Shown: in pieces, positions 31,035 to 42,316 of the stretch
Layout: each line of letters opens with the position of its first letter
Position numbering within the stretch: position 1 is the stretch's first letter
NCBI GenBank assembly: GCA_017470095.1
Contig: JAFUFC010000055.1
Location: 1 to 56,225, forward strand
DNA from: Clostridia bacterium
GTDB lineage: Bacteria; Bacillota; Clostridia; Christensenellales; Aristaeellaceae
Length of the DNA stretch: 56,225 bases
Direction: 5' to 3'
The notes under the pieces: model-generated
What the model was told of the DNA's origin: nothing
Seen by the model: the letters and a program-made list of their open reading frames with translations, nothing else
The model's database searches: none
Made by a program: the position numbers and the translations under genes

Positions 31035-31430
31035 TCATTCATCCATATTCGTGGAAACGGTGATGCTGTGCTGGGCCAGGTAAGCCTGCAGGGCGTCAAA
31101 GGAGGCATTGCTCAAGGCCCGTTCGATGGCTCCGGCTTCCTGCCGGGCCACAGCATCGTCTACGCCGGCCTGGCGCAGCAGCGCTCGAAAATACAGGCAC
31201 CGCCGGTGCAATTGCCAGGCCCGGTCTTCCCCTATGGCGGTCAGGGATAGGGCCCCGTCCGGCGCGGTGTTCACCAGCTTTTCAGCGCCCAGCTGCTTGA
31301 GCGCCACGCTGACGGCGGCTTTCGAGCAGCCCAGATAATGGGCCACATCCACCGACCGAACGCAGAAATATTTTCGGCTCAGGATTAAAATAGCTTGCAG
31401 GTAACGGTCGATGGCGCGTGTATTTTCCAT
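31035..31430 (-). CDS. DtxR/MntR family regulator with altered metal site
   Basis: A 131-residue protein with a winged helix at about residues 7-66 (YLQAILILSRKYFCVRSVDVAHYLGCSKAAVSVALKQL, then LSLTAIG) and a dimerisation helix region (GAIERALSNASF). The family is clear, but against MntR the usual metal ligands appear replaced: the acidic pair around the first helix reads DRYLQ, the central RH..L block reads RRCL, and the IEHH block reads IERA. Only one Glu is kept. Cysteines occur at 23, 35 and 78. It may therefore sense something other than Mn or Fe, perhaps redox state. Length is short, without the SH3 domain. Confidence 0.82.
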   Translation of the reverse strand: MENTRAIDRYLQAILILSRKYFCVRSVDVAHYLGCSKAAVSVALKQLGAEKLVNTAPDGALSLTAIGEDRAWQLHRRCLYFRALLRQAGVDDAVARQEAGAIERALSNASFDALQAYLAQHSITVSTNMDE

Positions 31431-31637: not shown

Positions 31638-32193
31638 TTTCCAGCTGCCGGAAATAATCGCTACGGTATTCAGAGGGAGTCATCCCCGTCATTTTTCTGA
31701 ACACGTGGGAGAAGTGAGAGGAGGAGGTGAACCCGGCCTGCTCTCCTGCTTGGGAGATGCTCACCTCTCCTTGGGCAAGCAGGGCCTTGGCTTTTTCGCA
31801 GCGGACGAAATTGTGGTACCACAGCAGCGTGCAGCCGGTGTTTTCCCTGAAGGTTCGCAGCAGGTAACTGCCGTTGATGTACAGGGAAGCGGATAGGGTG
31901 GCCAGGGAAAATTTCTCGGCGCTGTGCTCTTCGATGTATTGCTTGGCGGCCTGCACCAATTCATGCTTGGCGCCTTTCCAATTGGGCCGGTCGGGCCGGC
32001 AGTGGCCGCAGGGCTTGTAGCCTTGGCTCAGGGCCTCCTCCAAAGAGCGGAATATGGCCACATTCCGCGCTTCCCGGGCGCGAAGGGGGCAGGAGGGAGC
32101 GCATACGATCTTCTGGTTGATCAGGCCGCAAAACAGCTTGCCGTCGTACCGGGCGTTGCGGTCGCGAATGATCTGCCATTCTTCTTTGGTCAC
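31633..32193 (-). CDS. Ada-type Zn domain plus AraC HTH regulator (AdaA-like)
   Basis: A 186-residue protein. Residues 1-75 form the Ada metal-binding domain, with the four-Cys site CAPSC and PCGHC; the first of these Cys is the methyl acceptor in Ada. Residues 80-186 form an AraC DNA-binding domain with two helix-turn-helix units (FSLATLSASLYINGSYLLRTFRE and SISQAGEQAGFTSSSHFSHVFRKMTGMTPSEYR). It probably senses methylphosphotriesters and activates alkylation repair; no methyltransferase partner is adjacent. The stop codon lies inside repeat B2. It is divergent from the iron operon. Confidence 0.92.
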   Translation of the reverse strand: MTKEEWQIIRDRNARYDGKLFCGLINQKIVCAPSCPLRAREARNVAIFRSLEEALSQGYKPCGHCRPDRPNWKGAKHELVQAAKQYIEEHSAEKFSLATLSASLYINGSYLLRTFRENTGCTLLWYHNFVRCEKAKALLAQGEVSISQAGEQAGFTSSSHFSHVFRKMTGMTPSEYRSDYFRQLEN

Positions 32194-32238
32194 GTTTTCT
32201 CTCTGCCTTTCTGCACTAACAGCGGTTTATGGGACGTT

Positions 32239-32254
32239 GTTAGTTAGAACTAAC
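32239..32254. promoter_or_regulatory. GTTAG palindrome 1, DtxR/IdeR-like operator
   Basis: GTTAGTTAGAACTAAC: 7-bp arms with a 2-bp centre, between the divergent ada-like and FTR1 genes. Resembles the GTTAG...CTAAC core of DtxR-family operators. Confidence 0.6.
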
Positions 32255-32360
32255 TTACTTATGTTAACACAGATAAACTCATCCGTCAACGGTTTTTGAA
32301 ACTGGTCAATATTAGACAAAAAATATCAGTATAAAAGTCAATTTTGGAATAGCACCTTTG

Positions 32361-32405
32361 GTTAGATTATGCTAATATAACGTCTGCGGGTTAGATAAAT
32401 CTAAC
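32361..32405. promoter_or_regulatory. GTTAG palindrome 2 and half-site upstream of FTR1
   Basis: GTTAGATAAATCTAAC at 32390-32405 is a second perfect 7-2-7 palindrome of the same form. GTTAGATTATGCTAAT at 32361-32376 is an imperfect copy that covers the likely minus-10 region (TAATAT, 32373-32378). I see no good minus-35 box. Confidence 0.6.
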
Positions 32406-32486
32406 GAAATGGAAAAATCGGCCCGTTTTTCGCCGGAATCTCCCCGTTTTTTGAGGAAAGCAGGCGAAAAAGAAAGGAAGTACAGC

Positions 32487-34241
32487 ATGGAAAGGAAAAA
32501 AGTCGCGTGGCTGCCGCTGATGCTGGCGTTGGTCATGCTGCTGATGACGGCGCTGCCCCTGGCCGGTCTGGCAGAGGGAAATACCTCCACCCGCTGGAAG
32601 GACGCGGCGGATGCCATTGACAAGTATGCCGACACAGCGTTCTCGGATTATCTGGCCGGCGATTACGGCAAGGCATACAAGAACGTCAGCGACGCATATT
32701 TCCAGATTTATGAAATTACCGGTTTTGAACGCCAGACGCTGAGCTACATCAACGGTCCCCGGAAAAACGCTGTGGAGCTTCAGTTCTCCGCCTGCAAAGC
32801 GGCGGTGAAAAAGGATAATGCTGTTGAAGAAAATGTGACCGCCGCCCGGTCCGCTCTGGTCAAATTGAAGACCATGATCCGTGAGGACTGCAACAAGCTG
32901 TCCGTCAAGGATGGGGAAGCGGTATCGGAAATCAGCTATTGGAAGGATGGCCAGCAGGTCGACTCCGATCCTTTTGCGGATTACGGGGACGGCGCTGATG
33001 ACGGCGCTGTGCACTACAAGACCTGGTCCGAAGCGTATGACGCCATTGACGAACTGCTGGACACCGCGTATATCGGTTATCGGGGCCGGGATTTTGAATC
33101 CGCCGTCGATAACGTGAATACCGCGTACTACACGGTGTACGAAGAATCTGGCCTGAGCCACAAAATTTACAGCGAAATGGGCATTGAAACCCGGGAGAGC
33201 GTGGACGCCACCTTCACCAAACTGAAGGATATCCTGGCCAGCGATCGCTTCCAGTCGAAGGGTTTCCAGCGGCAGGCCAAGGCCGTGAAGAGCGCCATCC
33301 TGGCCCAGACCACCGTGCTGGATGAAAAGAACGCCGCGGAACAGGCCGAAAAGGCCGCAGCCGCACAGGCGGCCGCCGAAGCCGCCGCCCAAGAAACGGT
33401 GCAGAGCGATCCCCGGCTACTCACTTTCCTGGGCGCATTCGGCATCATTGTCCGCGAGGGCCTGGAAGCCATTCTGGTCATCGCCGCCATCATCGCCTAC
33501 CTGGTCAAGAGCGGCAATGCCAAGAACTTGAAAAACGTGTACATCGGCGCTGTGGCTGGTATCGCGGCAAGCTTTGCCGCCGCCGCCGTCCTGGCGTGGG
33601 CAAAATCCACCTTCGCCGCCGCTGGCATGGCCCAGGAGATCATTGAGGGCATTACCGCCCTGATCGCCGTGTGCGTGCTGTTCTATGTGAGCAACTGGAT
33701 GATCTCGAAGGCCGAGGCTGCTTCCTGGAGCCGGTATATTGATGGTAAGGTGCAGTCCTCTGTGGAGCAGGGCAGCGCGTTTGCCCTGGCCTTCACTGCT
33801 TTCCTGAGCGTGTTCCGCGAAGGTGCTGAAGTGGTGCTGTTCTATCAGCCTATGCTCAGCGAGGGCAACCCCGGCATGGTGTGGGCCGGATTCGGCGTGG
33901 GCTGCGTGGTGTTGGTGTTTGTGTACCTGGCCATTACGAAACTGTCCATCAAGCTGCCCATCAAGGTATTCTTTACCGCCACTTCGATCCTGATGGCCGT
34001 GATGTGCGTCAGCTTCCTGGGCAGCGGCATCAAGGAACTGGCCGAGGGCAACGTGTTCGACGTCACCTTGCAGGTGCCGGGCATTCCGGAAAACGATGTT
34101 TTGCAGGTGCTGGGCATCTACCCGTACCTGGAGACGCTGGTGCCCCAGCTGATCTTGGCCATCATCCTTTTGATCACCTTCATGATCGCCCATTATCGGG
34201 GGAAGATGGACGCCCTCAAGGCCGAATACCACAAGGGCTGA
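32487..34241 (+). CDS. FTR1 family iron permease with duplicated extracytoplasmic domain
   Basis: A 584-residue protein: signal peptide (1-30), an extracytoplasmic part with two related helical repeats (about 35-125 and 170-265, each with an AYxAIDxxxDTA-like start and a DAYFxxYE-type helix), an Ala/Gln-rich linker, then seven transmembrane helices. The two iron-binding REXXE motifs are REGLE (about residue 323) and REGAE (about 445). FTR1 proteins pass iron after an extracytoplasmic redox step. The ATG at 32487 has GGAAG 6 bases upstream; a longer frame from 32409 overlaps the palindromic operator and is unlikely. First gene of the iron operon. Confidence 0.93.
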   Translation: MERKKVAWLPLMLALVMLLMTALPLAGLAEGNTSTRWKDAADAIDKYADTAFSDYLAGDYGKAYKNVSDAYFQIYEITGFERQTLSYINGPRKNAVELQFSACKAAVKKDNAVEENVTAARSALVKLKTMIREDCNKLSVKDGEAVSEISYWKDGQQVDSDPFADYGDGADDGAVHYKTWSEAYDAIDELLDTAYIGYRGRDFESAVDNVNTAYYTVYEESGLSHKIYSEMGIETRESVDATFTKLKDILASDRFQSKGFQRQAKAVKSAILAQTTVLDEKNAAEQAEKAAAAQAAAEAAAQETVQSDPRLLTFLGAFGIIVREGLEAILVIAAIIAYLVKSGNAKNLKNVYIGAVAGIAASFAAAAVLAWAKSTFAAAGMAQEIIEGITALIAVCVLFYVSNWMISKAEAASWSRYIDGKVQSSVEQGSAFALAFTAFLSVFREGAEVVLFYQPMLSEGNPGMVWAGFGVGCVVLVFVYLAITKLSIKLPIKVFFTATSILMAVMCVSFLGSGIKELAEGNVFDVTLQVPGIPENDVLQVLGIYPYLETLVPQLILAIILLITFMIAHYRGKMDALKAEYHKG

Positions 34242-34327
34242 TGAACTTGTTTCTCCTGGGCGCGGGACCCCGCATTCGCGCCCTGGTGATAAATGGACCC
34301 CAATAAAATTGAGGAGGAAACTGACTT

Positions 34328-34924
34328 ATGAAAAAGGTTATCGCCCTGCTGCTGGCCGCCATGATGCTGCTGGCTGCCGTTTCCGCTCTGGCTGAAGAAG
34401 ACAAGGAAATGGGCTTCGAAGAAACCCCCATCCTGCTGGATGGTACCAAGACTGAGGAAGATCCTGACTACGAAGACGAAACCGACGTTGGCGAACTGCA
34501 TATCGCCGCCGTGTACTTCCAGCCCGTTCAGATGGAGCCCGCCGATCAGGCTGGCCTGACCGTGGAAGAATCCAACATCCATCTGGAAGCTGACATCCAC
34601 TGGAATAAGAACGAAGTGGGCTTCGACGTGGGCGCTTGGGTTCCCTACCTGACCGTGGACTACAAGATCACCTCTGAAACCGACGGTTCCGTGGCCGCTG
34701 AAGGTTCCTTCATGGTCATGAGCGCTGACGACGGCCCCCACTACGGCGCCAACGTGAAGCTGGACAAATCCGACGTTTATACCCTGACCTTCACCATCCA
34801 CAATCCCGCTGAAAACGGCTATCTGCTGCACGTGGACGAGGAAACTGGCGTGACCGGCCGTTTCTGGGAAGAACCCATCGTTGTGGATTTCGTTCATTGG
34901 GAATACACCGTGCAGGAATGGTAA
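34328..34924 (+). CDS. P19/Tp34 family extracytoplasmic iron-binding protein
   Basis: A 198-residue protein with a signal peptide (1-22, ending SALA), an acidic linker, and the P19 immunoglobulin-like domain. Candidate metal ligands are the Met and His in VYFQPVQMEP, NIHLEADIHWNKNEVGFDVGAWVPYL and DDGPHYGANV, in the order expected for the copper and iron sites of P19. P19 proteins bind ferric or ferrous iron and hand it to the FTR1 permease. It has a strong ribosome binding site (GAGGAGGAAA), and two hairpins follow the gene, so it may be expressed above the level of the downstream genes. Confidence 0.93.
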   Translation: MKKVIALLLAAMMLLAAVSALAEEDKEMGFEETPILLDGTKTEEDPDYEDETDVGELHIAAVYFQPVQMEPADQAGLTVEESNIHLEADIHWNKNEVGFDVGAWVPYLTVDYKITSETDGSVAAEGSFMVMSADDGPHYGANVKLDKSDVYTLTFTIHNPAENGYLLHVDEETGVTGRFWEEPIVVDFVHWEYTVQEW

Positions 34925-34963
34925 TTTGATTCCTGCCTGAAGAGACGGACGGGGAATGAACGC

Positions 34964-35004
34964 TTCCGGGGCCAAAGCTGGTTTCAGCCCCGGAAACGGC
35001 CCTT
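34964..35004 (+). terminator. Hairpin downstream of p19
   Basis: TTCCGGGG / CCCCGGAA stem with a 16-base loop, then ACGGCCCTTTCTCC. It may stabilise or partly terminate the P19 transcript. Confidence 0.45.
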
Positions 35005-35122
35005 TCTCCTCAAATGGAGCAATCCAATTCTTACAGCCGCCGTGCCGGGCATGCCTATGTCGGCAAAGGGTGACTACAATGTTATGCCAGCGCTGGGGTT
35101 TCCCTGGCGGCGCATAAAAAAC

Positions 35123-35176
35123 ACTGCTGGCACGGCGATCCGCGGGGGATTGGCCTGCCAGCAGTTTGCTTATTTT
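35123..35176 (+). terminator. Attenuator-like hairpin before the DUF2318 gene
   Basis: ACTGCTGGCA / TGCCAGCAGT perfect 10-bp stem with a 23-base loop, followed by TTGCTTATTTT. It lies 30 bp before the next start codon and could lower expression of the transporter genes relative to p19. Confidence 0.5.
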
Positions 35177-35195
35177 AACTTGGAGGGGTCATACT

Positions 35196-36515
35196 TTGCT
35201 GAATTACATTGTTACGGTTACAGAAGACGTGGTCATGGCGGCGGTCATGATCTGCCTGATGTGGGCGCTGTGCCGGCTGGCTTTTGGCCACAAGGGCGTG
35301 CGGTTCGTGGCCGGGGGCCTGATCCTGGGCTTCGTCGCTTCCGGCGTCATGGCCTACATGAAAAACAAGACCAATAAAATTGCCACCAACCAATGGAATT
35401 TTTACATCTTCCTGGCGACGATTGGGCTGACGCTGCTGTTCCTGATTTTTTCCGTCATTTTTGGGCGGAAGCACCGGAAGCTGATGTACTACGGCACGGA
35501 TACCGACGCGGGCATTGGCTTTGGCGGCTTCGCTGTGGGCATCATTTCCGCTTTGCTGACGGCCGTGCTGGTGTTTTATGAGGGCCCGGATGTGCTGGCC
35601 TACCCTTTCTTGTTTGAAACGGCGGGCAATGGCGTGCTGTCTGCTGAATGGGCGCTGCGACTGGCGGGATATTTGCTGGCGCTACTGCTGGTGTGGGTGT
35701 ATGTGCGCTTTTTGTATCGCTGCGTTATGAGCCTGGACAGCACCCACGCGGTGCTGTGGGCAATCAACGCGATGATGCTGGTCAACGCGGTGCGGTGTCT
35801 GGGCCTGGGGGTGAGCAAATGGACGGCTCGTTCCCGTTGGCTCAAATGGATGCCCGCTTACAGCAGAGGCAAATATCCTTGGGCGTTTCCGCTGGCCAAA
35901 TTCACCACCAATAATACGCTGGTGTTTGTGCTGGCGATCCTGGCTTTGTCCCTGGTGATTCCGGTGATCCTGTTCATTCGTCATACGAAAGTGCGGCAGG
36001 CGTACGATAACCCGGCCCAGCTGCGCAAGCTGAAATCCATCAACCGCCGGAACCGGCGCTGGGCCGTGGGTGCGCTGGTGTGCGCGGCGCTGGCGGTGTT
36101 CAACCTGACGGTGGTAAACGCCTACAATAACCGGCCCATCGAACTGTCCCAGCCGGAGGAATACGAAGTTCGGGGGGATGAAATCTACATCGATCTGAAC
36201 CAAGTCAACGACGGCCATCTGCACCGGTTTGAATATACCACGGACAATAAGATCGGCGTGCGGTGGATCGTGGTGAAGAAGCCTGGGGCAGGGGCCTACG
36301 GCGTGGGCCTGGACGCCTGCGATGTGTGCGGCAACGCTGGCTATTACGAGCGGGGCGAGCAGGTGGTGTGCAAACGCTGCGACGTGGTGATGAACATCAA
36401 CACCATCGGCTTCAAGGGCGGCTGCAACCCCATTCCGCTGGCTTTTACGGTCAATGGCGGCCAGATGATTTTCCAACTGTCGGATATCTTGGCCGGGGAA
36501 AAGGAATTTAAGTGA
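35196..36515 (+). CDS. DUF2318 membrane protein with Cys-rich C-terminus
   Basis: A 439-residue protein with eight or nine transmembrane helices and an extracytoplasmic C-terminal domain (about 330-439). That domain holds C375-xx-C378 (DACDVCGNAGYY), a second CxxC (VVCKRCDVVMNI), and a further Cys in GGCNPIPL, the DUF2318 signature that probably binds a metal or Fe-S centre. Campylobacter jejuni has a homologue in the p19 locus. The start TTG at 35196 follows GGAGGGG at 35181. It is probably an electron-transfer or metal-handling partner of the transporter. Confidence 0.9.
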   Translation: MLNYIVTVTEDVVMAAVMICLMWALCRLAFGHKGVRFVAGGLILGFVASGVMAYMKNKTNKIATNQWNFYIFLATIGLTLLFLIFSVIFGRKHRKLMYYGTDTDAGIGFGGFAVGIISALLTAVLVFYEGPDVLAYPFLFETAGNGVLSAEWALRLAGYLLALLLVWVYVRFLYRCVMSLDSTHAVLWAINAMMLVNAVRCLGLGVSKWTARSRWLKWMPAYSRGKYPWAFPLAKFTTNNTLVFVLAILALSLVIPVILFIRHTKVRQAYDNPAQLRKLKSINRRNRRWAVGALVCAALAVFNLTVVNAYNNRPIELSQPEEYEVRGDEIYIDLNQVNDGHLHRFEYTTDNKIGVRWIVVKKPGAGAYGVGLDACDVCGNAGYYERGEQVVCKRCDVVMNINTIGFKGGCNPIPLAFTVNGGQMIFQLSDILAGEKEFK

Positions 36516-36528
36516 AGGGGGAAGAAGG

Positions 36529-37824
36529 ATGCTTTTCAGAATGATCCGGGGCGCGCTGTTCCGGCAAAAGGGAAAAATGCTCCTGATCGCCTTTACCATT
36601 GCGCTGGGCGCGTCCCTGGCCACCGGCATGCTGAACGTGATGCTGGATGTGGGGGACAAAGTGAATCAGGAATTGAAAACCTACGGCGCCAATATCGTGG
36701 TGAAGCCCAAGGATTCCTCTCTCTTGTCCGACATTTATGATGTGGGGGACGGAGAAGAACTGAACGCCGCCTACCTGCGGGAGGATGAGCTGGGCAAATT
36801 GAAGACCATCTTCTGGGCCTTCAACATTGTGGACTTTACGCCCTTCCTGGACACCGCTGTGACGCTGCCGGACGGCGAAAGCGTGAAAATGGTGGGCACC
36901 TGGTTCAACCATCATCTGGATCTGCCTACCGGCGAGAGCCTGGACGCGGGCGTGGCCGGTATGCGCTCCTGGTGGGATATCACCGCGGGCGAATGGCTGG
37001 ATGAAAGCGATACGGACGCCCTGAATGAAATCATGGTGGGCGCGCAGCTGGCCCAGCAGGAAGGCTGGCAGGTGGGCGACCAGGTGAAGCTGACCGGCAC
37101 CCACGGGGAGGCGGATGTTACCGTGACCGGCATTTATGACGCCGGCGGCGACGAAGACAACCAAATCTTCGCCACCTTGGACCTGGTGCAGCAACTGACC
37201 AACCGAGAAAACAAGGTGGCTTCCATTGAGGTATCGGCCATCACTACCCCGGATAACGATCTGGCCCGCCGGGCGGCCCGGAACCCCAAATCCTTATCCC
37301 AACGGGATTACGAAACCTGGTATTGCACCGCCTACGTCAGCGCCATTTGCTACCAGATCCAGGAAGTGATTACCGGTTCCGTGGCCAGCGCCGTGCGCCA
37401 GGTGGCGGAAAGCGAAGGGGCCATCCTGGATAAAACCCAGCTGCTGATGATCCTGATCACCGCGCTGAGCCTGGTGGGCTCCGCTTTGGGCATCTCGAAC
37501 CTGGTCACCGCCAGCGTGATGGAGCGGTCCCAGGAGATTGGCCTGCTCAAGGCCATCGGCGCCCATGATGGGGCCATCACCGGCGTGGTCATGGCGGAGA
37601 TCCTGATCACCGCATTGGTTGGCGGCGTGGCGGGGTATTTTATGGGCTTTGGCTTTGCTCAGCTCATCGGCCACAGCGTGTTTGGTGCGGCGGTGGAAAT
37701 GAAACCCATGGTCATTCCCATTGTGGCGGTGCTGATTTCTCTGGTAACCATCGCCGGGAGCATGCCCGCTATCCGGATGGTGCTGCGTCTCCGTCCTGCC
37801 GAAGTGCTGCACGGCGGACATTGA
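36529..37824 (+). CDS. FtsX/MacB-type ABC permease, P19-operon type 1
   Basis: A 431-residue protein: one N-terminal membrane helix, a large extracytoplasmic domain (about 40-290), then three C-terminal helices with the FtsX motif ERSQEIGLLKAIGA. Two Cys lie just before the membrane region (WYCTAYVSAICYQ), as expected for the first permease of P19 loci. It would pair with the ATPase at 39333 and the second permease as a MacB-like, mechanotransmitting complex rather than a classical importer. It begins 13 bp after the DUF2318 gene. Confidence 0.92.
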   Translation: MLFRMIRGALFRQKGKMLLIAFTIALGASLATGMLNVMLDVGDKVNQELKTYGANIVVKPKDSSLLSDIYDVGDGEELNAAYLREDELGKLKTIFWAFNIVDFTPFLDTAVTLPDGESVKMVGTWFNHHLDLPTGESLDAGVAGMRSWWDITAGEWLDESDTDALNEIMVGAQLAQQEGWQVGDQVKLTGTHGEADVTVTGIYDAGGDEDNQIFATLDLVQQLTNRENKVASIEVSAITTPDNDLARRAARNPKSLSQRDYETWYCTAYVSAICYQIQEVITGSVASAVRQVAESEGAILDKTQLLMILITALSLVGSALGISNLVTASVMERSQEIGLLKAIGAHDGAITGVVMAEILITALVGGVAGYFMGFGFAQLIGHSVFGAAVEMKPMVIPIVAVLISLVTIAGSMPAIRMVLRLRPAEVLHGGH

Positions 37825-37850
37825 TCAAGGAAAGGCACGGATCACACGCT

Positions 37851-39314
37851 ATGACGAAAAGAAGAATGTTTCTGCGGATGATTACCGCATCCCTGCTCCG
37901 GCGGCGTTCCCGCATGCTGATCGCGTTGTTGTCCATCGGCATCGGGGCCACCATCCTGTCCGGCCTGGTAACGATTTATTATGATGTGCCCCGGCAGATG
38001 GGCGCGCAGTTCCGCTCCTACGGGGCCAATATGATTCTGCTGCCGGAGGGGCAGAAGGAAATGTCCCCTGATTCTTTGCATGAAACCCTGAAATTAATTC
38101 CGGAGGATCAGCTGGTGGGCGCCACGCCCTACCGCTACGTGCGGCTGGATATGACGCTGCGCCAGCAGTCCTTCACCTCCGCCGGTACGGATTTTTCTCA
38201 GGTGCAAAAGACCAGCCCTTATTTCAGCGTAGAGGGGCGGTATCCGGAAAACGACCGGGAAGTGCTGGTGGGCAAAGAAATTGCTGATACCATCGGCGTG
38301 AAGGTGAATAGCCCCATGCAATTGACCTATAAGCCCACCGTGACCGTCAGCGACCACGCGGAGGACGACTGGGTGGCGGGGGCCACCCTGGCCGGCAGCG
38401 CCGAGGGCTGGAATAACAGCCTGGTCACCGTGACGGCGGTGCTGGACGGCGATAAGAAAATTGCCTCCATCGAGATTGACGCTTCCACTCAGACGGAAGA
38501 ATACGGCGGCCGCGCCATGACCGACCTAAACTTCCAGAAGCAGTTTATTGGCAAATCCCTGCCCTTGACGCTGGGAGAGGACGTTGACGCATTGACCGGC
38601 GCCACAGTTACTTCCACCGCCATCGTGGACGCCCTCAACACCTCCCGGAACGCTTCCCAGGCCACTGTGGCCGCGGAACGGACTGGCTATTTCACCGTTA
38701 CCGGCATTCTGGAAACCGGCGGCGAGGAAGAATCTTACGTGTTCATTTCACTTTCGGATATGGCGTATTTGACCGGGGAGAACAAGCTGGACGTGGCGGA
38801 GCTGAGCATTTCTGCCAACGCCGATCAGTTGGACGCCTACGTAAACGCCATCACGGAAGCGGATGCCGGCGTTATTCCCCGGCTGGTCAAGCGGGTTACC
38901 CGGTCTGAAACCGCGGTATTATCAAAATTGCAGGCGCTGGTGTTCCTGGTCACGGCGGTGGTGCTGCTGTTAACCATGATCTGCGTGTCCACCACCATGA
39001 TGGCTGTTGTCTCCGAGCGCCGGCGGGAAATCGGTCTGCGCAAAGCCCTGGGCGCGTCGGATAATTCCATCCGGGCGGAGTTCCTGGGCGAGGGCATGTT
39101 CCTGGGCGGGCTGGGCGGCATCATGGGTTCAATTTTGGGCTTTGTGTTTGCCCAGGTGGTCAGCGTCAATGTGTTTGGCTCGTCCATTATGTTCCAGCCC
39201 CTGCTGCTGCCCATCACGGTGATCGTGTCGATGGTAATCGCTGCGCTGTCCTGCCTGCTGCCCATCAAACGGGCCGTGGCCATTGATCCGGCCCTGGTGC
39301 TTAAGGGCGAATAA
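37851..39314 (+). CDS. FtsX/MacB-type ABC permease with inserted FMN-binding domain
   Basis: A 487-residue protein. N-terminal helix, extracytoplasmic region about 35-360, then three C-terminal helices with ERRREIGLRKALGASD. Inside the extracytoplasmic part, residues about 175-262 read as an FMN-binding domain: SLVTVTAVLDGDKKIASIEI, then TEEYGGRAM and D246-A-L-T-G-A-T252-VTS, followed by AIVDALN. D-x-x-T-G-A-T is the ApbE flavinylation consensus, so T252 is a predicted FMN attachment site. The domain splits the usual MacB periplasmic fold. The start ATG at 37851 follows AAGGAAAGG; a TTG at 37821 is possible. This is the most unusual gene of the operon. Confidence 0.92.
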   Translation: MTKRRMFLRMITASLLRRRSRMLIALLSIGIGATILSGLVTIYYDVPRQMGAQFRSYGANMILLPEGQKEMSPDSLHETLKLIPEDQLVGATPYRYVRLDMTLRQQSFTSAGTDFSQVQKTSPYFSVEGRYPENDREVLVGKEIADTIGVKVNSPMQLTYKPTVTVSDHAEDDWVAGATLAGSAEGWNNSLVTVTAVLDGDKKIASIEIDASTQTEEYGGRAMTDLNFQKQFIGKSLPLTLGEDVDALTGATVTSTAIVDALNTSRNASQATVAAERTGYFTVTGILETGGEEESYVFISLSDMAYLTGENKLDVAELSISANADQLDAYVNAITEADAGVIPRLVKRVTRSETAVLSKLQALVFLVTAVVLLLTMICVSTTMMAVVSERRREIGLRKALGASDNSIRAEFLGEGMFLGGLGGIMGSILGFVFAQVVSVNVFGSSIMFQPLLLPITVIVSMVIAALSCLLPIKRAVAIDPALVLKGE

Positions 39315-39332
39315 TCAGAGGAGGAAAACAAG

Positions 39333-40007
39333 ATGAGCCTTCTGGAATTGAAAAACGTATCGAAAATATATGGAGAATTGAAAGCACTGGATCACGTGAA
39401 CATTCATGTGGATCAGGGCGAATGGGTGGCCATCATGGGGCCCTCCGGCTCGGGCAAGAGCACGATGATGAACATTATCGGCTGCATGGATAAGCCCAGC
39501 GTGGGCGAAGTGCTGCTGGACGGCGTGGATATCTCCAAGGAAAGCAGCAAAAAGCTGACCGATATCCGCCGGGATAAAATTGGCCTGATCTTCCAGCAGT
39601 TCCATATGGTCAATTACCTGACCGCCGTGGAAAATGTGATGGTCAGCCAGTATTACCATTCCATGCCCGATGAGGAAGAGGCGCTGGAAGCTCTGGGCCG
39701 GGTGGGACTGCGGGACCGCGCCCGTCATTTGCCTAGCCAGCTTTCCGGCGGCGAGCAGCAGCGCGTGTGCGTGGCCCGGGCATTAATTAATCATCCCGAG
39801 CTGATCCTGGCCGACGAGCCTACCGGCAACCTGGACGAGGCTAACGAAAATATTGTGCTGGATCTGTTCCGGCAATTACACAACGAGGGCACCACCCTGA
39901 TCGTGGTTACCCACGACCCCGAGGTGGCCGAGGCGGCCCAGCGCACCATCGTGCTGGAACATGGCCGGGTGGCCCGAGAAGTGATTAACGAGAATTTCGG
40001 TAAATGA
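39333..40007 (+). CDS. ABC transporter ATPase, LolD/MacB type
   Basis: A 224-residue ATPase with Walker A GPSGSGKST, Q-loop QQFHMVN, signature LSGGEQQRV, Walker B LILADEPTGNLD and switch His in VVTHDPEVA. The LolD/FtsE-like length and motif style match the FtsX-type permeases just upstream, with which it overlaps functionally as the first energising module. RBS GAGGAGG. Confidence 0.93.
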   Translation: MSLLELKNVSKIYGELKALDHVNIHVDQGEWVAIMGPSGSGKSTMMNIIGCMDKPSVGEVLLDGVDISKESSKKLTDIRRDKIGLIFQQFHMVNYLTAVENVMVSQYYHSMPDEEEALEALGRVGLRDRARHLPSQLSGGEQQRVCVARALINHPELILADEPTGNLDEANENIVLDLFRQLHNEGTTLIVVTHDPEVAEAAQRTIVLEHGRVAREVINENFGK

Positions 40008-40031
40008 TACGAGGTTTAAAAGGTAAAAAAT

Positions 40032-40430
40032 ATGAAGCAATTCTCTTTCTCTGCTTGTGTTATTTTGCTGCTGGCCCTGGTAATCGCAATCGGTAGCGTC
40101 AGCTTCCTGGGCCCCTGCGTTCATGAGGATGGCAGTTTTGGCGCGTGCCACTGGGCCGGCCAGGGGATGCTGGGCATTGGCATCCTGCTGGCGGCGCAGA
40201 GCTTGCTGGCCCTGGTATCCAAGCAGCCCCGCACGAAAATGGGCGTATATCTGGCGCTGGTTTCCACGGCCTTGCTGGGGATATTCGTTCCCGGCACCCT
40301 GATTTCCCTGTGCCGTATGGCCACCATGCGCTGCCGGGCCATCATGCAACCGGCCATGACCATCCTGTGCGTGGTGACGGCGGCCGTATCCATTGCAGAA
40401 TATTTTACTGAACGGAAAAAAGCCAAGTGA
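40032..40430 (+). CDS. DUF4418 small membrane protein
   Basis: A 132-residue protein with four transmembrane helices. Conserved Cys/His pairs face the outside: FLGPCVHEDGSFGACHWAGQ between helices 1 and 2, and LCRMATMRCRAIMQP between helices 3 and 4, both typical of DUF4418. Such genes occur next to FtsX-type transporters. A role in metal or electron transfer is plausible but not shown. It joins the first and second ABC modules of the operon. Confidence 0.85.
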   Translation: MKQFSFSACVILLLALVIAIGSVSFLGPCVHEDGSFGACHWAGQGMLGIGILLAAQSLLALVSKQPRTKMGVYLALVSTALLGIFVPGTLISLCRMATMRCRAIMQPAMTILCVVTAAVSIAEYFTERKKAK

Positions 40431-40434
40431 GGAA

Positions 40435-41640
40435 ATGATGAAACGAATCTCTCTTCCCTGGAAAAACTTGATCCGAAAGCCGGGGCGCACCTGCGCCCTG
40501 GTTTTGTTGACGGCGTTTCTGGCGCTGTCGGTGTTTGGCGGGTCGCTGGTGGTGCTGTCCCTGCGCAGCGGGCTGAACAGCCTGGAGGCCCGGCTGGGGG
40601 CGGATATCATCGTGGTGCCTGCGTCCGCTACTTCCAAAATCAACGTGCAGGAATTGCTGCTGCAAGGCACCACCGGTACCTTTTATATGAATGCCGCCAA
40701 TCTGAAACGGGCGGCGGAGGTGAACGGCGTTGAAAAGCTGGCTGCCCAGACGTTTCTGGCGTCCTTGAAGGCAGAATGCTGCTCCAGCAAGGTGCAGGTC
40801 ATCGGCTTTGATCCGAAAACGGATTTCATTGTGCAGCCCTGGATCGCCCAAAGCCTGGCTCATGAGCTGGGTGAAGGCGAAGTGGTGGTGGGCAGCAAGG
40901 TGGAGGCCGAGGTGGGGGAAACCATTCGGCTCTACAATGCGCGCTGCAAGGTGGCGGCTCGGCTGTCGCCCACCGGCACCGGTCTGGATACGGCGGTGTA
41001 TTGCAGCCATGTTACCATGAAAATGCTGCTCAAGGCGGCGGAGGATAAGGGCATCAGCCACAAGGTCACCAGCGATTCGGACGATCTGATTTCCGCCATT
41101 TATGTGAAGGTGAAGGACGGCTATGACATCGATGAGGTGACGGGCAACCTGAACCTGCATGTGCGCAAGGTATCCGCTGTGCGCACGAAGAGCATGATTA
41201 CCGATGTGTCCGACAGCTTGGCCGCCGTGTCCGGCACGGTCACGCTGCTGATCATTGCGGTGTGGGTGCTGGCATTCATCATCCTGCTGATTGCCTTTGC
41301 CATGATCAGCAACGAGCGGAAGCGGGAGTTTGCCGTGCTGCGTTTGGTGGGTACGTCCCGACGCATGCTCAGCCGAATGGTGCTGGCCGAATCAGCCCTG
41401 TCCAGCTTCCTGGGCGCTCTGGCGGGCATTGGCGTTGCGGCGGCGGTGGTGCTTCCATTTGCCACCCTGATCGAAACCAGCCTGAATCTTCCGTACCTAA
41501 CGCCCGGCACCGGCACGGTGCTGCTATTGGCGCTGGGCACGCTGATCGCCACCGTGTTCATCGGCTCCCTGGCCAGCGCTTTTGCGGCGTTTCGCCTCAG
41601 CCGAATCGACCCGGGCGCCATCTTGCGGGAGGGTAATTGA
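40435..41640 (+). CDS. FtsX-like ABC permease, second module
   Basis: A 401-residue protein: N-terminal helix (TCALVLLTAFLALSVFGGSLV), an extracytoplasmic domain of about 200 residues with SKINVQELLLQGTTGTFYM, and three C-terminal helices with the FtsX-type ERKREFAVLRLVGTSRRML. Cysteines occur in LKAECCSSK and YNARCK. It overlaps no gene but starts 4 bp after the DUF4418 stop. Two Met codons stand at the start (40435 and 40438). It pairs with the ATPase that follows. Confidence 0.9.
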   Translation: MMKRISLPWKNLIRKPGRTCALVLLTAFLALSVFGGSLVVLSLRSGLNSLEARLGADIIVVPASATSKINVQELLLQGTTGTFYMNAANLKRAAEVNGVEKLAAQTFLASLKAECCSSKVQVIGFDPKTDFIVQPWIAQSLAHELGEGEVVVGSKVEAEVGETIRLYNARCKVAARLSPTGTGLDTAVYCSHVTMKMLLKAAEDKGISHKVTSDSDDLISAIYVKVKDGYDIDEVTGNLNLHVRKVSAVRTKSMITDVSDSLAAVSGTVTLLIIAVWVLAFIILLIAFAMISNERKREFAVLRLVGTSRRMLSRMVLAESALSSFLGALAGIGVAAAVVLPFATLIETSLNLPYLTPGTGTVLLLALGTLIATVFIGSLASAFAAFRLSRIDPGAILREGN

Positions 41641-41641
41641 C

Positions 41642-42316
41642 ATGATCCTAAAGGCAGAATCCATTGCAAAGCGCTATTTCCGCAAAACGGGGGAAGCCAA
41701 TTATTTTTACGCCGTCAAGCCTGTGGATCTGACACTGGAGAGCGGCACGGTTACTGTACTGATGGGGCGCAGCGGGTCGGGAAAAACCACATTGCTGAAC
41801 ATGCTCTCCGGGCTGCTTTGGCCCAGCGAGGGGCAACTGTGGCTGGGAGAAACGAATGTATACAGCTTGGATGATTGGCGTTTGTCCCGGCTGCGCAATG
41901 AGCAGATTGGCGTGGTGCCACAGGGACGCAGCGCCATCGATACCCTGACGGTGATGGAAAATGTGCTTCTGCCCGGGGCACTGTATGGCAAAGCGGACAA
42001 AACCGGCATGGCCCGGAAGTGGCTGGAGGAAATGGGTATTGGGCATTTGGCGGACGCCCGGCCTGGCGAACTGTCCGGCGGTGAACTGCGCCGTATGGCC
42101 ATTGCCCGCGCTATGACGATGAATCCCCAAGTGATTCTGGCCGATGAGCCCACCGGCGATCTGGACGATGAAAATACCGCCCTGGTGCTGAACGCCTTCC
42201 GCACCGCCGCCAGCCAGGGAAAGATTGTTTTCCTGGTCACCCACGAAACCGACGCCTTGCGGTATACCGATCGGGCGTTTCAAATGGACGCCGGGGAGAT
42301 ACAGCTGGTCAAATGA
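41642..42316 (+). CDS. ABC transporter ATPase, second module
   Basis: A 224-residue ATPase with Walker A GRSGSGKTT, Q-loop VVPQGRSAI, signature LSGGELRRM, Walker B VILADEPTGDLD and switch LVTHETDA. It starts one base after the stop of its permease. Last gene of the operon; a strong terminator begins at its stop codon. Confidence 0.93.
   Translation: MILKAESIAKRYFRKTGEANYFYAVKPVDLTLESGTVTVLMGRSGSGKTTLLNMLSGLLWPSEGQLWLGETNVYSLDDWRLSRLRNEQIGVVPQGRSAIDTLTVMENVLLPGALYGKADKTGMARKWLEEMGIGHLADARPGELSGGELRRMAIARAMTMNPQVILADEPTGDLDDENTALVLNAFRTAASQGKIVFLVTHETDALRYTDRAFQMDAGEIQLVK

What the first reader, a model, noticed from the sequence alone, without database searches (positions are those of the whole stretch)
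32487..42316. P19-FTR1 iron operon with a flavinylated-type ABC permease
The operon order FTR1, P19, DUF2318, two FtsX/MacB permeases and an ATPase matches the known Campylobacter p19 locus (cj1658-cj1663), but the second permease (37851-39314) contains an FMN-binding domain with D246-A-L-T-G-A-T252, the ApbE target pattern. Campylobacter has thioredoxin-like genes at the corresponding place. My inference is that a covalently bound flavin performs the extracytoplasmic redox step that P19/FTR1 systems need, making the transporter itself a ferric reductase. The DUF2318 and DUF4418 Cys clusters could relay electrons.
Basis: partly seen in the sequence, partly recalled or inferred. Interest (0 to 1): 0.85.

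Follow-up and report, generated by a model that had tools for sequence, protein, structure and literature searches.

The report
Flavin domain inside an iron permease
A group of gut bacteria has spliced a flavin-carrying electron-transfer domain into the outer part of a membrane permease in a known iron-uptake operon, where relatives keep it as a separate gene, which suggests that the permease itself handles the electrons needed to take up iron.

Summary
Window 32487-42316 is an FTR1-P19-DUF2318-permease-permease-ATPase iron operon followed by DUF4418-permease-ATPase. The second permease (37851-39314) carries an FMN_bind domain (Pfam E=1e-9) with the ApbE motif D246-A-L-T-G-A-T252. Its insertion splits the MacB-type outer domain. 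The genome has one ApbE, with a lipoprotein signal.

That P19/FTR1 operons of Gram-positives have an FMN-binding protein is published (2017 and 2018, as a separate gene; 2021, form not stated). I found no paper that places it inside the permease. In the window's family 39 of 40 such permeases are fused (37 of the 39 keep the strict motif), with no separate FMN gene behind the ATPase in 35 of 35 assessable loci. The 20 intact unfused permeases read (one from this family) lack the insert; 11 have a separate FMN gene directly behind the ATPase. Fused operons form one clade. The inserted domain groups with Rnf-type FMN domains rather than with the operon's own FMN genes (favoured, not proven).

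DtxR-type palindromes upstream support iron control. That flavin is attached, and that it reduces ferric iron, are inferences; direction is open. Verdict: new variant of a known system.

The parts
31038..31430 (-). DtxR/MntR-type metal-dependent repressor, candidate regulator
   Evidence: PF01325 E=5.8e-5 (23.7 bits, below its cut-off of 26) and PF02742 E=0.0013 (19.1 bits, cut-off 27); a homologue somewhere in the locus in 27 of 80 genome-contig loci, 26 of the 58 that hold FTR1
32239..32254 (.). palindrome GTTAG-N6-CTAAC, DtxR-like operator candidate
   Evidence: the three exact TTAG-N6-CTAA sites of the whole 56-kb window all lie in 32240-32404 (expected 0.20)
32361..32376 (.). second palindrome (one mismatch to GTTAG-N6-CTAAC)
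32390..32405 (.). third palindrome GTTAGATAAATCTAAC
   Evidence: TTAG-N6-CTAA within 300 bp before FTR1 in 43 of 54 sequences (shuffled 0.6%), in 0 of 54 stretches inside FTR1 and 0 of 67 before FetA
32487..34241 (+). FTR1 iron permease (FetM-like) with a long N-terminal part before the FTR1 domain; REGLE and REGAE motifs visible
   Evidence: PF03239 E=2.5e-37, residues 315-518; sequence
34328..34924 (+). P19 (FetP-like) extracytoplasmic iron-binding protein; H85, H138, H168 conserved
   Evidence: PF10634 E=1.6e-51; the three His in 63/63 rows of the fused set and 22, 22 and 21 of 22 others
35196..36515 (+). FetA-like membrane protein with FtrD-like/DUF2318 domain, CxxC-x13-CxxC-x14-C (TTG start with GGAGG before it)
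   Evidence: PF10080 E=2.5e-29; the five Cys and H347 (P0009 numbering) in 69/69 and 20/20 rows
36529..37824 (+). FetB-like MacB/FtsX permease, no insert
   Evidence: FtsX 9.3e-18, MacB_PCD 6.3e-13
37851..39314 (+). FetC-like MacB/FtsX permease with an FMN-binding domain inserted in its outer domain
   Evidence: FtsX 2e-21, FMN_bind 1e-9; MacB_PCD appears once the insert is removed in silico
38364..38666 (+). FMN-binding domain insert, residues about 172-272 of the permease
   Evidence: PF04205 at 192-263; profile match to RnfG and an FMN4 domain of solved structure; alignments
38586..38606 (+). ApbE flavinylation motif D246-A-L-T-G-A-T252; T252 is the predicted FMN attachment site
   Evidence: invariant D246, G250, A251, T252 in 71 sequences
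39333..40007 (+). FetD-like ATPase
   Evidence: ABC_tran 4.7e-34; best NCBIfam match MacB, below that model's cut-off
40032..40430 (+). DUF4418, membrane protein with four hydrophobic stretches and four conserved Cys between them
   Evidence: PF14387 5.2e-22; C29, C39, C94, C101 in 57/57 and 4/4 rows; in another set of 34 rows one (L060) lacks C39
40435..41640 (+). third MacB/FtsX permease with a vicinal Cys pair C115-C116
   Evidence: FtsX 1.7e-15, MacB_PCD 6.2e-10; C115 in 52 and C116 in 53 of 53 rows, both in 5/5 others
41642..42316 (+). second ATPase
   Evidence: ABC_tran 1.4e-33

Best explanation
This is a P19-FTR1 (FetMP-FetABCD / BfeUO-SifABCD type) iron-uptake operon in which the stand-alone extracytoplasmic FMN protein of related operons has been replaced by an FMN-binding domain, probably of Rnf type, inserted into the MacB-type outer domain of permease FetC. 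ApbE most likely attaches FMN to T252 outside the cell membrane (inferred, strong). The flavin then most likely passes electrons between a membrane electron source (in this genome perhaps the Rnf complex with its multi-FMN protein, inferred) and iron held by P19/FTR1, perhaps through the Cys cluster of FetA, so that iron is in the right redox state for FTR1 (inferred). FetBCD is of the MacB/LolCDE type, whose known members do mechanical work outside the membrane (recalled), so ATP may move the flavin domain between donor and acceptor (speculative). The operon is probably repressed by a DtxR-type regulator (supported by conserved palindromes). Shown here: gene content, insertion site, motif conservation, ApbE, one fused clade, absence of the separate gene in fused operons. 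Not shown: covalent FMN, redox activity, direction.
For: Pfam assignments. Insert splits MacB_PCD: absent in the native protein, E=1.4e-11 once the insert is removed, E=2.2e-10 in the natural unfused homologue L065. Hydropathy: one stretch at 22-40, a long loop 41-361 that holds the insert, then 362-380 and further stretches between 416 and 469, the MacB layout, in which the loop is outside (recalled). ApbE with an LSGC lipobox. Strict motif in 78 of 80 loci and 37 of 39 in an overlapping set. Slot: 39 of 40 family permeases found with the window's as query are fused, and none of the 35 assessable fused loci has an FMN gene within 1.5 kb after FetD; in the genome contigs set 0 of 67 assessable; of 20 intact unfused FetC read, 11 have an FMN gene directly after FetD. 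FetB tree: 19 fused loci = one clade 100/99, L065 next to it (99/97), both nested among separate-FMN operons. Purifying selection on the insert, dN/dS 0.16. Palindromes before FTR1. Published: B. breve sifE and apbE mutants grow normally with the ferric chelator and are impaired ('-' or '+' in Table 3) with dipyridyl and phenanthroline, close to the pattern of sifA-D (passages).
Against: No biochemical evidence of FMN on this protein. No structure could be predicted. ApbE is nearly universal in the family (37 of 39 fused genomes, 111 of 120 family genomes), so its presence is not specific evidence; the two fused genomes without it are 72-73% complete. Nine of 20 unfused operons have no FMN gene in the slot, so an FMN protein is not essential to every such system. 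The 80 genome-contig loci are the best matches to a fused query (80 kept of 554), so that set cannot show how common unfused forms are. The ferrous-side phenotype and the suggested oxidase role of FetE/F do not fit a simple ferric reductase. Electron donor and acceptor are guesses.
Confidence: 0.6

Rival explanations
1. Electrons flow the other way: the flavin takes electrons from ferrous iron so that FTR1 can carry ferric iron, as in the fungal Fet3-Ftr1 pair, with the flavin replacing oxygen in an anaerobe.
For: FTR1 permeases in fungi work with an oxidase (recalled). B. breve sifABCDE and apbE mutants are impaired by dipyridyl and phenanthroline, not by the ferric chelator. The authors suggest that C. 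jejuni FetE/F act as oxidases in vivo.
Against: A purified multi-FMN protein of this domain family, SaFMN3, has a midpoint of -184 mV (PMC10339131, passages), low for oxidising most ferrous complexes (recalled). The genome's Rnf complex with a multi-FMN protein would suit outward electron flow; its link to the permease is a guess.
Confidence: 0.2
2. The flavin is a redox sensor that gates the ABC machine, not an electron carrier on the iron path.
For: The domain sits inside the outer domain of a MacB/LolCDE-type permease.
Against: Relatives carry an FMN protein or, by Liu 2018, a thioredoxin as a separate gene in the same slot, which fits an exchangeable electron carrier better than a built-in gate.
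Confidence: 0.12
3. The FMN domain is a remnant without flavin.
For: No direct evidence of flavin; one contig has lost the motif region (L064 = L158).
Against: D246, G250, A251, T252 invariant in 71 sequences and dN/dS 0.16; ApbE present.
Confidence: 0.04
4. A known P19-FTR1-FMN operon in which the fusion changes nothing in mechanism.
For: The FMN/P19 link is published. The AU test does not reject a shared origin of the inserted domain and the operon FMN genes (p=0.24), as a plain gene fusion would need.
Against: In the best tree the inserted domains group with Rnf-type FMN domains (95/94), apart from the operon FMN genes (100/99), so it looks like a replacement. Insertion within a permease core domain also fixes where the electron step happens.
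Confidence: 0.25

Closest known systems
Bifidobacterium breve bfeUO-sifABCDE (PMC5449479)
   Same: two iron-uptake genes bfeUO, a membrane protein, two FtsX permeases, an ATPase and an FMN-binding protein; the published apbE mutant has a chelator phenotype close to that of sifE
   Different: SifE is a separate gene after the ATPase; no DUF4418 module mentioned in the passages read
Campylobacter jejuni fetMP-fetABCDEF (PMC6083913, PMC10783030)
   Same: same first six genes and order; DUF2318 Cys pattern CxxC-x13-CxxC-x14,15-C
   Different: thioredoxins FetE/FetF instead of an FMN protein; no FMN domain reported in FetC in the passages read
P19-associated flavinylation clusters of Meheust et al. 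2021 (PMC8238504)
   Same: P19/FTR1 with an FMN-binding domain, redox role in iron uptake proposed; 260 clusters
   Different: [quoted passage not shown] the word permease does not occur in the main text; the supplementary gene table was not open to me, so fused members may be in it
RnfG/NqrC and multi-flavinylated FMN domains
   Same: domain family and ApbE motif; profile matches to RnfG (9eri_G 4e-6, 7zc6_G 1.7e-5) and to FMN4 domain 1 (8p2b_A 1.8e-5)
   Different: here inserted in an ABC permease, not a subunit of Rnf/Nqr
MacB / LolCDE permeases
   Same: FtsX domain, MacB_PCD (split by the insert); PDB matches MacB and LolE
   Different: carries a redox domain; iron operon context

Membership tests
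P19-FTR1 (Fet/Bfe-Sif) iron-uptake system | FTR1, P19, DUF2318, two FtsX permeases and ATPase in this order | tested here: met
   FTR1 to FetD uninterrupted in this order in 53 of 80 genome-contig loci, the others mostly cut off on one side
P19-FTR1 (Fet/Bfe-Sif) iron-uptake system | DUF2318 motif CxxC-x13-CxxC-x14,15-C (Liu 2018) | tested here: met
   window CxxC-x13-CxxC-x14-C; five Cys in 69/69 and 20/20 rows
P19-FTR1 (Fet/Bfe-Sif) iron-uptake system | seventh gene for an extracytoplasmic redox protein (FMN or thioredoxin) | tested here: not met
   no separate FMN gene; the FMN domain is inside FetC. Not a required part: 9 of 20 unfused operons also lack an FMN gene in that slot; thioredoxins were not searched for there
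P19-FTR1 (Fet/Bfe-Sif) iron-uptake system | iron regulation and iron phenotype | tested here: inconclusive
   DtxR-like palindromes and a weakly matching repressor; no expression or growth data
ApbE-flavinylated FMN_bind proteins | PF04205 domain and D-x-x-[S/T]-G-A-[S/T] | tested here: met
ApbE-flavinylated FMN_bind proteins | extracytoplasmic location with an extracytoplasmic ApbE | tested here: met
   hydropathy and lipobox, ApbE; prediction only
ApbE-flavinylated FMN_bind proteins | covalently bound FMN | not testable with these tools
   needs protein work
MacB/LolCDE-type ABC permeases | FtsX domain, MacB_PCD, one helix before and three after the outer domain | tested here: met
   MacB_PCD only after the insert is removed; the last two helices are not cleanly separated by hydropathy
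RnfG | subunit encoded in an Rnf operon | tested here: not met
   no Rnf protein among the nine genes; an Rnf operon is on another contig, C110

The most novel reading that the evidence does not exclude
FetBCD is a redox-active ABC machine: ATP hydrolysis drives movement of a covalently flavinylated domain on the permease itself, coupling ATP use to electron transfer with iron outside the membrane; the flavin is supplied with electrons by the cell's Rnf-linked multi-flavin protein, from whose domain family the insert came.
Probability: 0.25. Interest if true: 0.85.

Novelty: new variant of a known kind. Interest (0 to 1): 0.58.

Why it matters
The role of the FetBCD-type transporter in P19/FTR1 iron uptake is unknown: the 2023 Campylobacter study says that its function and substrate remain unclear (PMC10783030, passage). 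A fusion is evidence that the extracytoplasmic electron carrier and the permease FetC act together, and it gives one protein on which the redox step can be tested. It also lets the published B. breve apbE phenotype, ascribed there to Fe-S clusters, be read as loss of flavin on SifE.

Tried and rejected
Structure prediction of FetC (A2) and DUF4418 (A3) was not available, so how the insert sits on the permease is not known. DUF4418 as a DsbB/VKOR-like thiol-quinone protein: suggested by four hydrophobic stretches and four Cys, but Pfam at E<=10 over 57 members gave no DsbB or VKOR among the 25 families shown of 55, and a PDB profile search gave nothing at E<=1; kept only as a lead. ApbE co-occurrence as evidence: set aside as uninformative (37/39 against 111/120 in the family). 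Fusion of the operon's own FMN gene: not favoured by the tree, not rejected by the AU test (p=0.24). Five operator consensus patterns (recalled) were tried upstream of FTR1; only the DtxR one was clearly nearer than in a shuffle (6.0 against 8.4 mismatches), Fur and MntR types were not. A terminator between P19 and FetA, as in B. breve: none reported there by the scan of 32000-35400. No literature match for a flavinylated permease: searches, and passages or sections of the papers opened; no paper was read whole, and subscription papers, preprints and supplements were not searched.

Rows dropped and limits: the first FMN tree used 59 domains, 17 of them from the 39 fused permeases; there the inserted group had weak support (59/78) and its side of the tree 62/85. 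The second used 43, with 15 inserted, after I left out two domains of L071 and all rows of L009, L015, L016, L034, L038, L060, L061, L075-L077, L080, L082, L107, L114, L119 and L126 that had been eligible, several for long branches; the higher support comes from that smaller set. The FetB tree used 37 loci, 19 of them fused. A2 took 70 of 80 FetC loci plus the window, A3 56 of 58 DUF4418 rows plus the window. Of 16 P19 loci fetched from the phylum sample, L177 and L192 have no intact FetC and were not counted; one of the 7 class P19 genomes (G315) was not fetched with its flanks. The set of 39 and that of 80 overlap and are not independent; the 80 are the best of 554 matches.
Full report
Observation. 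The second permease carries FMN_bind at residues 192-263 and the ApbE motif at 246-252. The domain interrupts the MacB-type outer domain: MacB_PCD is not detected in the native protein, is detected at E=1.4e-11 when the insert is removed in silico, and at E=2.2e-10 in the natural unfused homologue L065. A profile of 71 homologues matches MacB and LolE over the permease part, and RnfG and a multi-FMN domain over the insert. Hydropathy puts the insert in the long loop after the first helix, which is extracytoplasmic in this family (recalled).

Is the flavin likely to be attached? One ApbE was found in the genome, on contig C110, with a lipoprotein signal. D246, G250, A251 and T252 are invariant in A2. 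In the 80 loci 78 keep the strict motif and 79 keep D-x3-GAT; in the overlapping set of 39 it is 37 and 38. The exceptions are one contig with Ala for the first Ser/Thr (L048 = L151) and one with a deletion over the motif (L064 = L158). The FMN domain is under purifying selection (17 pairs). ApbE itself is near-universal in the family (111 of 120), so it adds no specific weight.

What it replaces. P19 was found in 7 of 391 genomes of a class sample and 17 of 398 of a phylum sample, the window's genome counted in both. All 20 intact unfused FetC genes read (L065-L070 and L178-L191) are 372-400 residues long; 11 of the 20 loci have a small FMN_bind gene directly after FetD, 9 have none that my profile found. 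One of the nine (L184) has in that slot a small protein with a weak cytochrome c7 match (E=4.3e-4, below cut-off). In the window's own family 40 such permeases were found with the window's protein as query: 39 fused, one (L065) unfused with a separate FMN gene. None of the 35 fused loci with enough downstream sequence has a separate FMN gene within 1.5 kb after FetD, nor have any of 67 in the genome contigs set; that second set holds the 80 best matches to a fused query and so cannot show unfused forms. No fused form was seen outside the family: among 200 relatives searched with the permease, 80 of other families had best E-values no lower than about 1e-15, and the 19 unfused loci from outside the family are noted above. 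Record titles name uncultured Clostridia, Christensenella and similar bins, many from rumen or gut compartments of sheep, goat and roe deer.

History. A FetB tree of 37 loci, which avoids the insert's own columns, puts the 19 fused operons in one clade (100/99); the nearest outside row is L065 (99/97), and both lie inside a clade of separate-FMN operons. So one insertion is enough. The FMN domains themselves, in the smaller set: operon FMN genes form one clade (100/99), inserted domains another (98/98), and the latter join RnfG and Rnf-multi-FMN domains (95/94), with Rnf-multi domains as sister (94/86). Forcing inserted and operon FMN domains together costs 6 log units, p-AU 0.24. In the larger first set the same arrangement had only weak support (62/85). 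Replacement by an Rnf-type domain is therefore favoured but not proven.

Electron source. Contig C110 of the genome holds ApbE, a NusG_II protein, a 1018-residue protein in which a local profile found eight FMN-like stretches (six pass in Pfam, four strict motifs), RnfC, RnfD, two Rnf-Nqr membrane proteins and an RnfB-like ferredoxin protein. Multi-flavinylated RnfG proteins are described by Meheust et al., who name Christensenellales for a subset with a multi-heme domain (section 18 read). That this Rnf system feeds the permease flavin is inference.

Regulation. The three exact TTAG-N6-CTAA palindromes of the whole window lie within 250 bp before FTR1 (expected 0.20; no shuffle of 100 reached three). 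The pattern lies within 300 bp before FTR1 in 43 of 54 sequences, against 0.6% in shuffles, and in 0 of 54 stretches inside FTR1 and 0 of 67 before FetA. The arms resemble the DtxR consensus (recalled), the only one of five tried that was clearly enriched. A gene with weak DtxR-type Pfam matches lies next to the operon; a homologue lies in 27 of 80 loci.

The second ABC module. DUF4418 occurs in 7 of 7 P19 genomes and 16 of 384 others in the same class sample (two of the 16 below Pfam's cut-off); five of the seven are of one family, so these are not independent. Its four Cys are in 57/57 and 4/4 rows, with one exception in another set (L060, 1 of 34); a vicinal Cys pair of the third permease is nearly invariant. 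Of 14 loci with DUF4418 and no P19, 13 have a matching permease and most an ATPase beside it; of six looked at more closely, three (L085, L088, L089) lie near sulfur-amino-acid or nitrogenase-like genes and two (L083, L095) beside another ABC operon. Its role in iron uptake is unknown. It was not detected, with the window's protein as query, in the P19 loci from other classes.

Known and new. Liu et al. 2018 state that Actinobacteria, Firmicutes, Spirochaetes and Synergistetes encode an FMN-binding protein as the seventh gene instead of a thioredoxin, and that either can serve as a source of extracytoplasmic reducing power (passage). Lanigan et al. 2017 name sifE a possible ferric reductase; in their Table 3 sifE and apbE mutants grow normally with ciclopirox olamine and are impaired with dipyridyl and phenanthroline (sifE -, -, +; apbE +, +, -), close to sifA-D (-, -, -); they ascribe apbE to Fe-S clusters. 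Meheust et al. 2021 count 260 P19 clusters with an FMN-binding gene. Domain databases may well list this combination; I could not check.

Direction and mechanism. A ferric-reductase role is the simplest reading, but the mutant phenotypes point to ferrous uptake, and the Campylobacter authors suggest oxidation by FetE/F. I leave the direction open at about 3 to 1 for reduction (judgement).

Noticed in passing
own genome contig C110 (locus L071, 8682-18029): Rnf operon in which a 1018-residue protein with about eight FMN-binding stretches stands where RnfG would be, next to the one ApbE found; four strict motifs.
   Followed up: partly
own genome contig C157 (locus L072, 5810-10768): A 1652-residue protein that looks like two copies of (two FMN_bind + FAD_binding_2); the genome has 25 FMN_bind matches in all.
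   Followed up: no
window 40032-42316; loci L083-L096: DUF4418 + permease (vicinal Cys pair) + ATPase is a conserved module that also occurs without P19, in L085, L088 and L089 near CysK/MetB-like or nitrogenase-like genes. One paper in the library mentions DUF4418 (listing only seen).
   Followed up: partly
L184 13728-14003: In the slot after FetD an unfused P19 operon has a small protein with a weak cytochrome c7 match, a possible third kind of electron carrier in this position.
   Followed up: no
L178 5339-6040: The stand-alone FMN gene of one P19 operon carries two FMN-binding domains.
   Followed up: no
L064 / L158: One fused permease lacks the stretch with the motif (in-frame deletion or assembly fault).
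   Followed up: no
window 36529-37824: FetB has a Cys (C266) kept in 78/78 rows of the fused set and 20/21 others, and a second (C274) kept in 78/78 but only 7/21 others.
   Followed up: no
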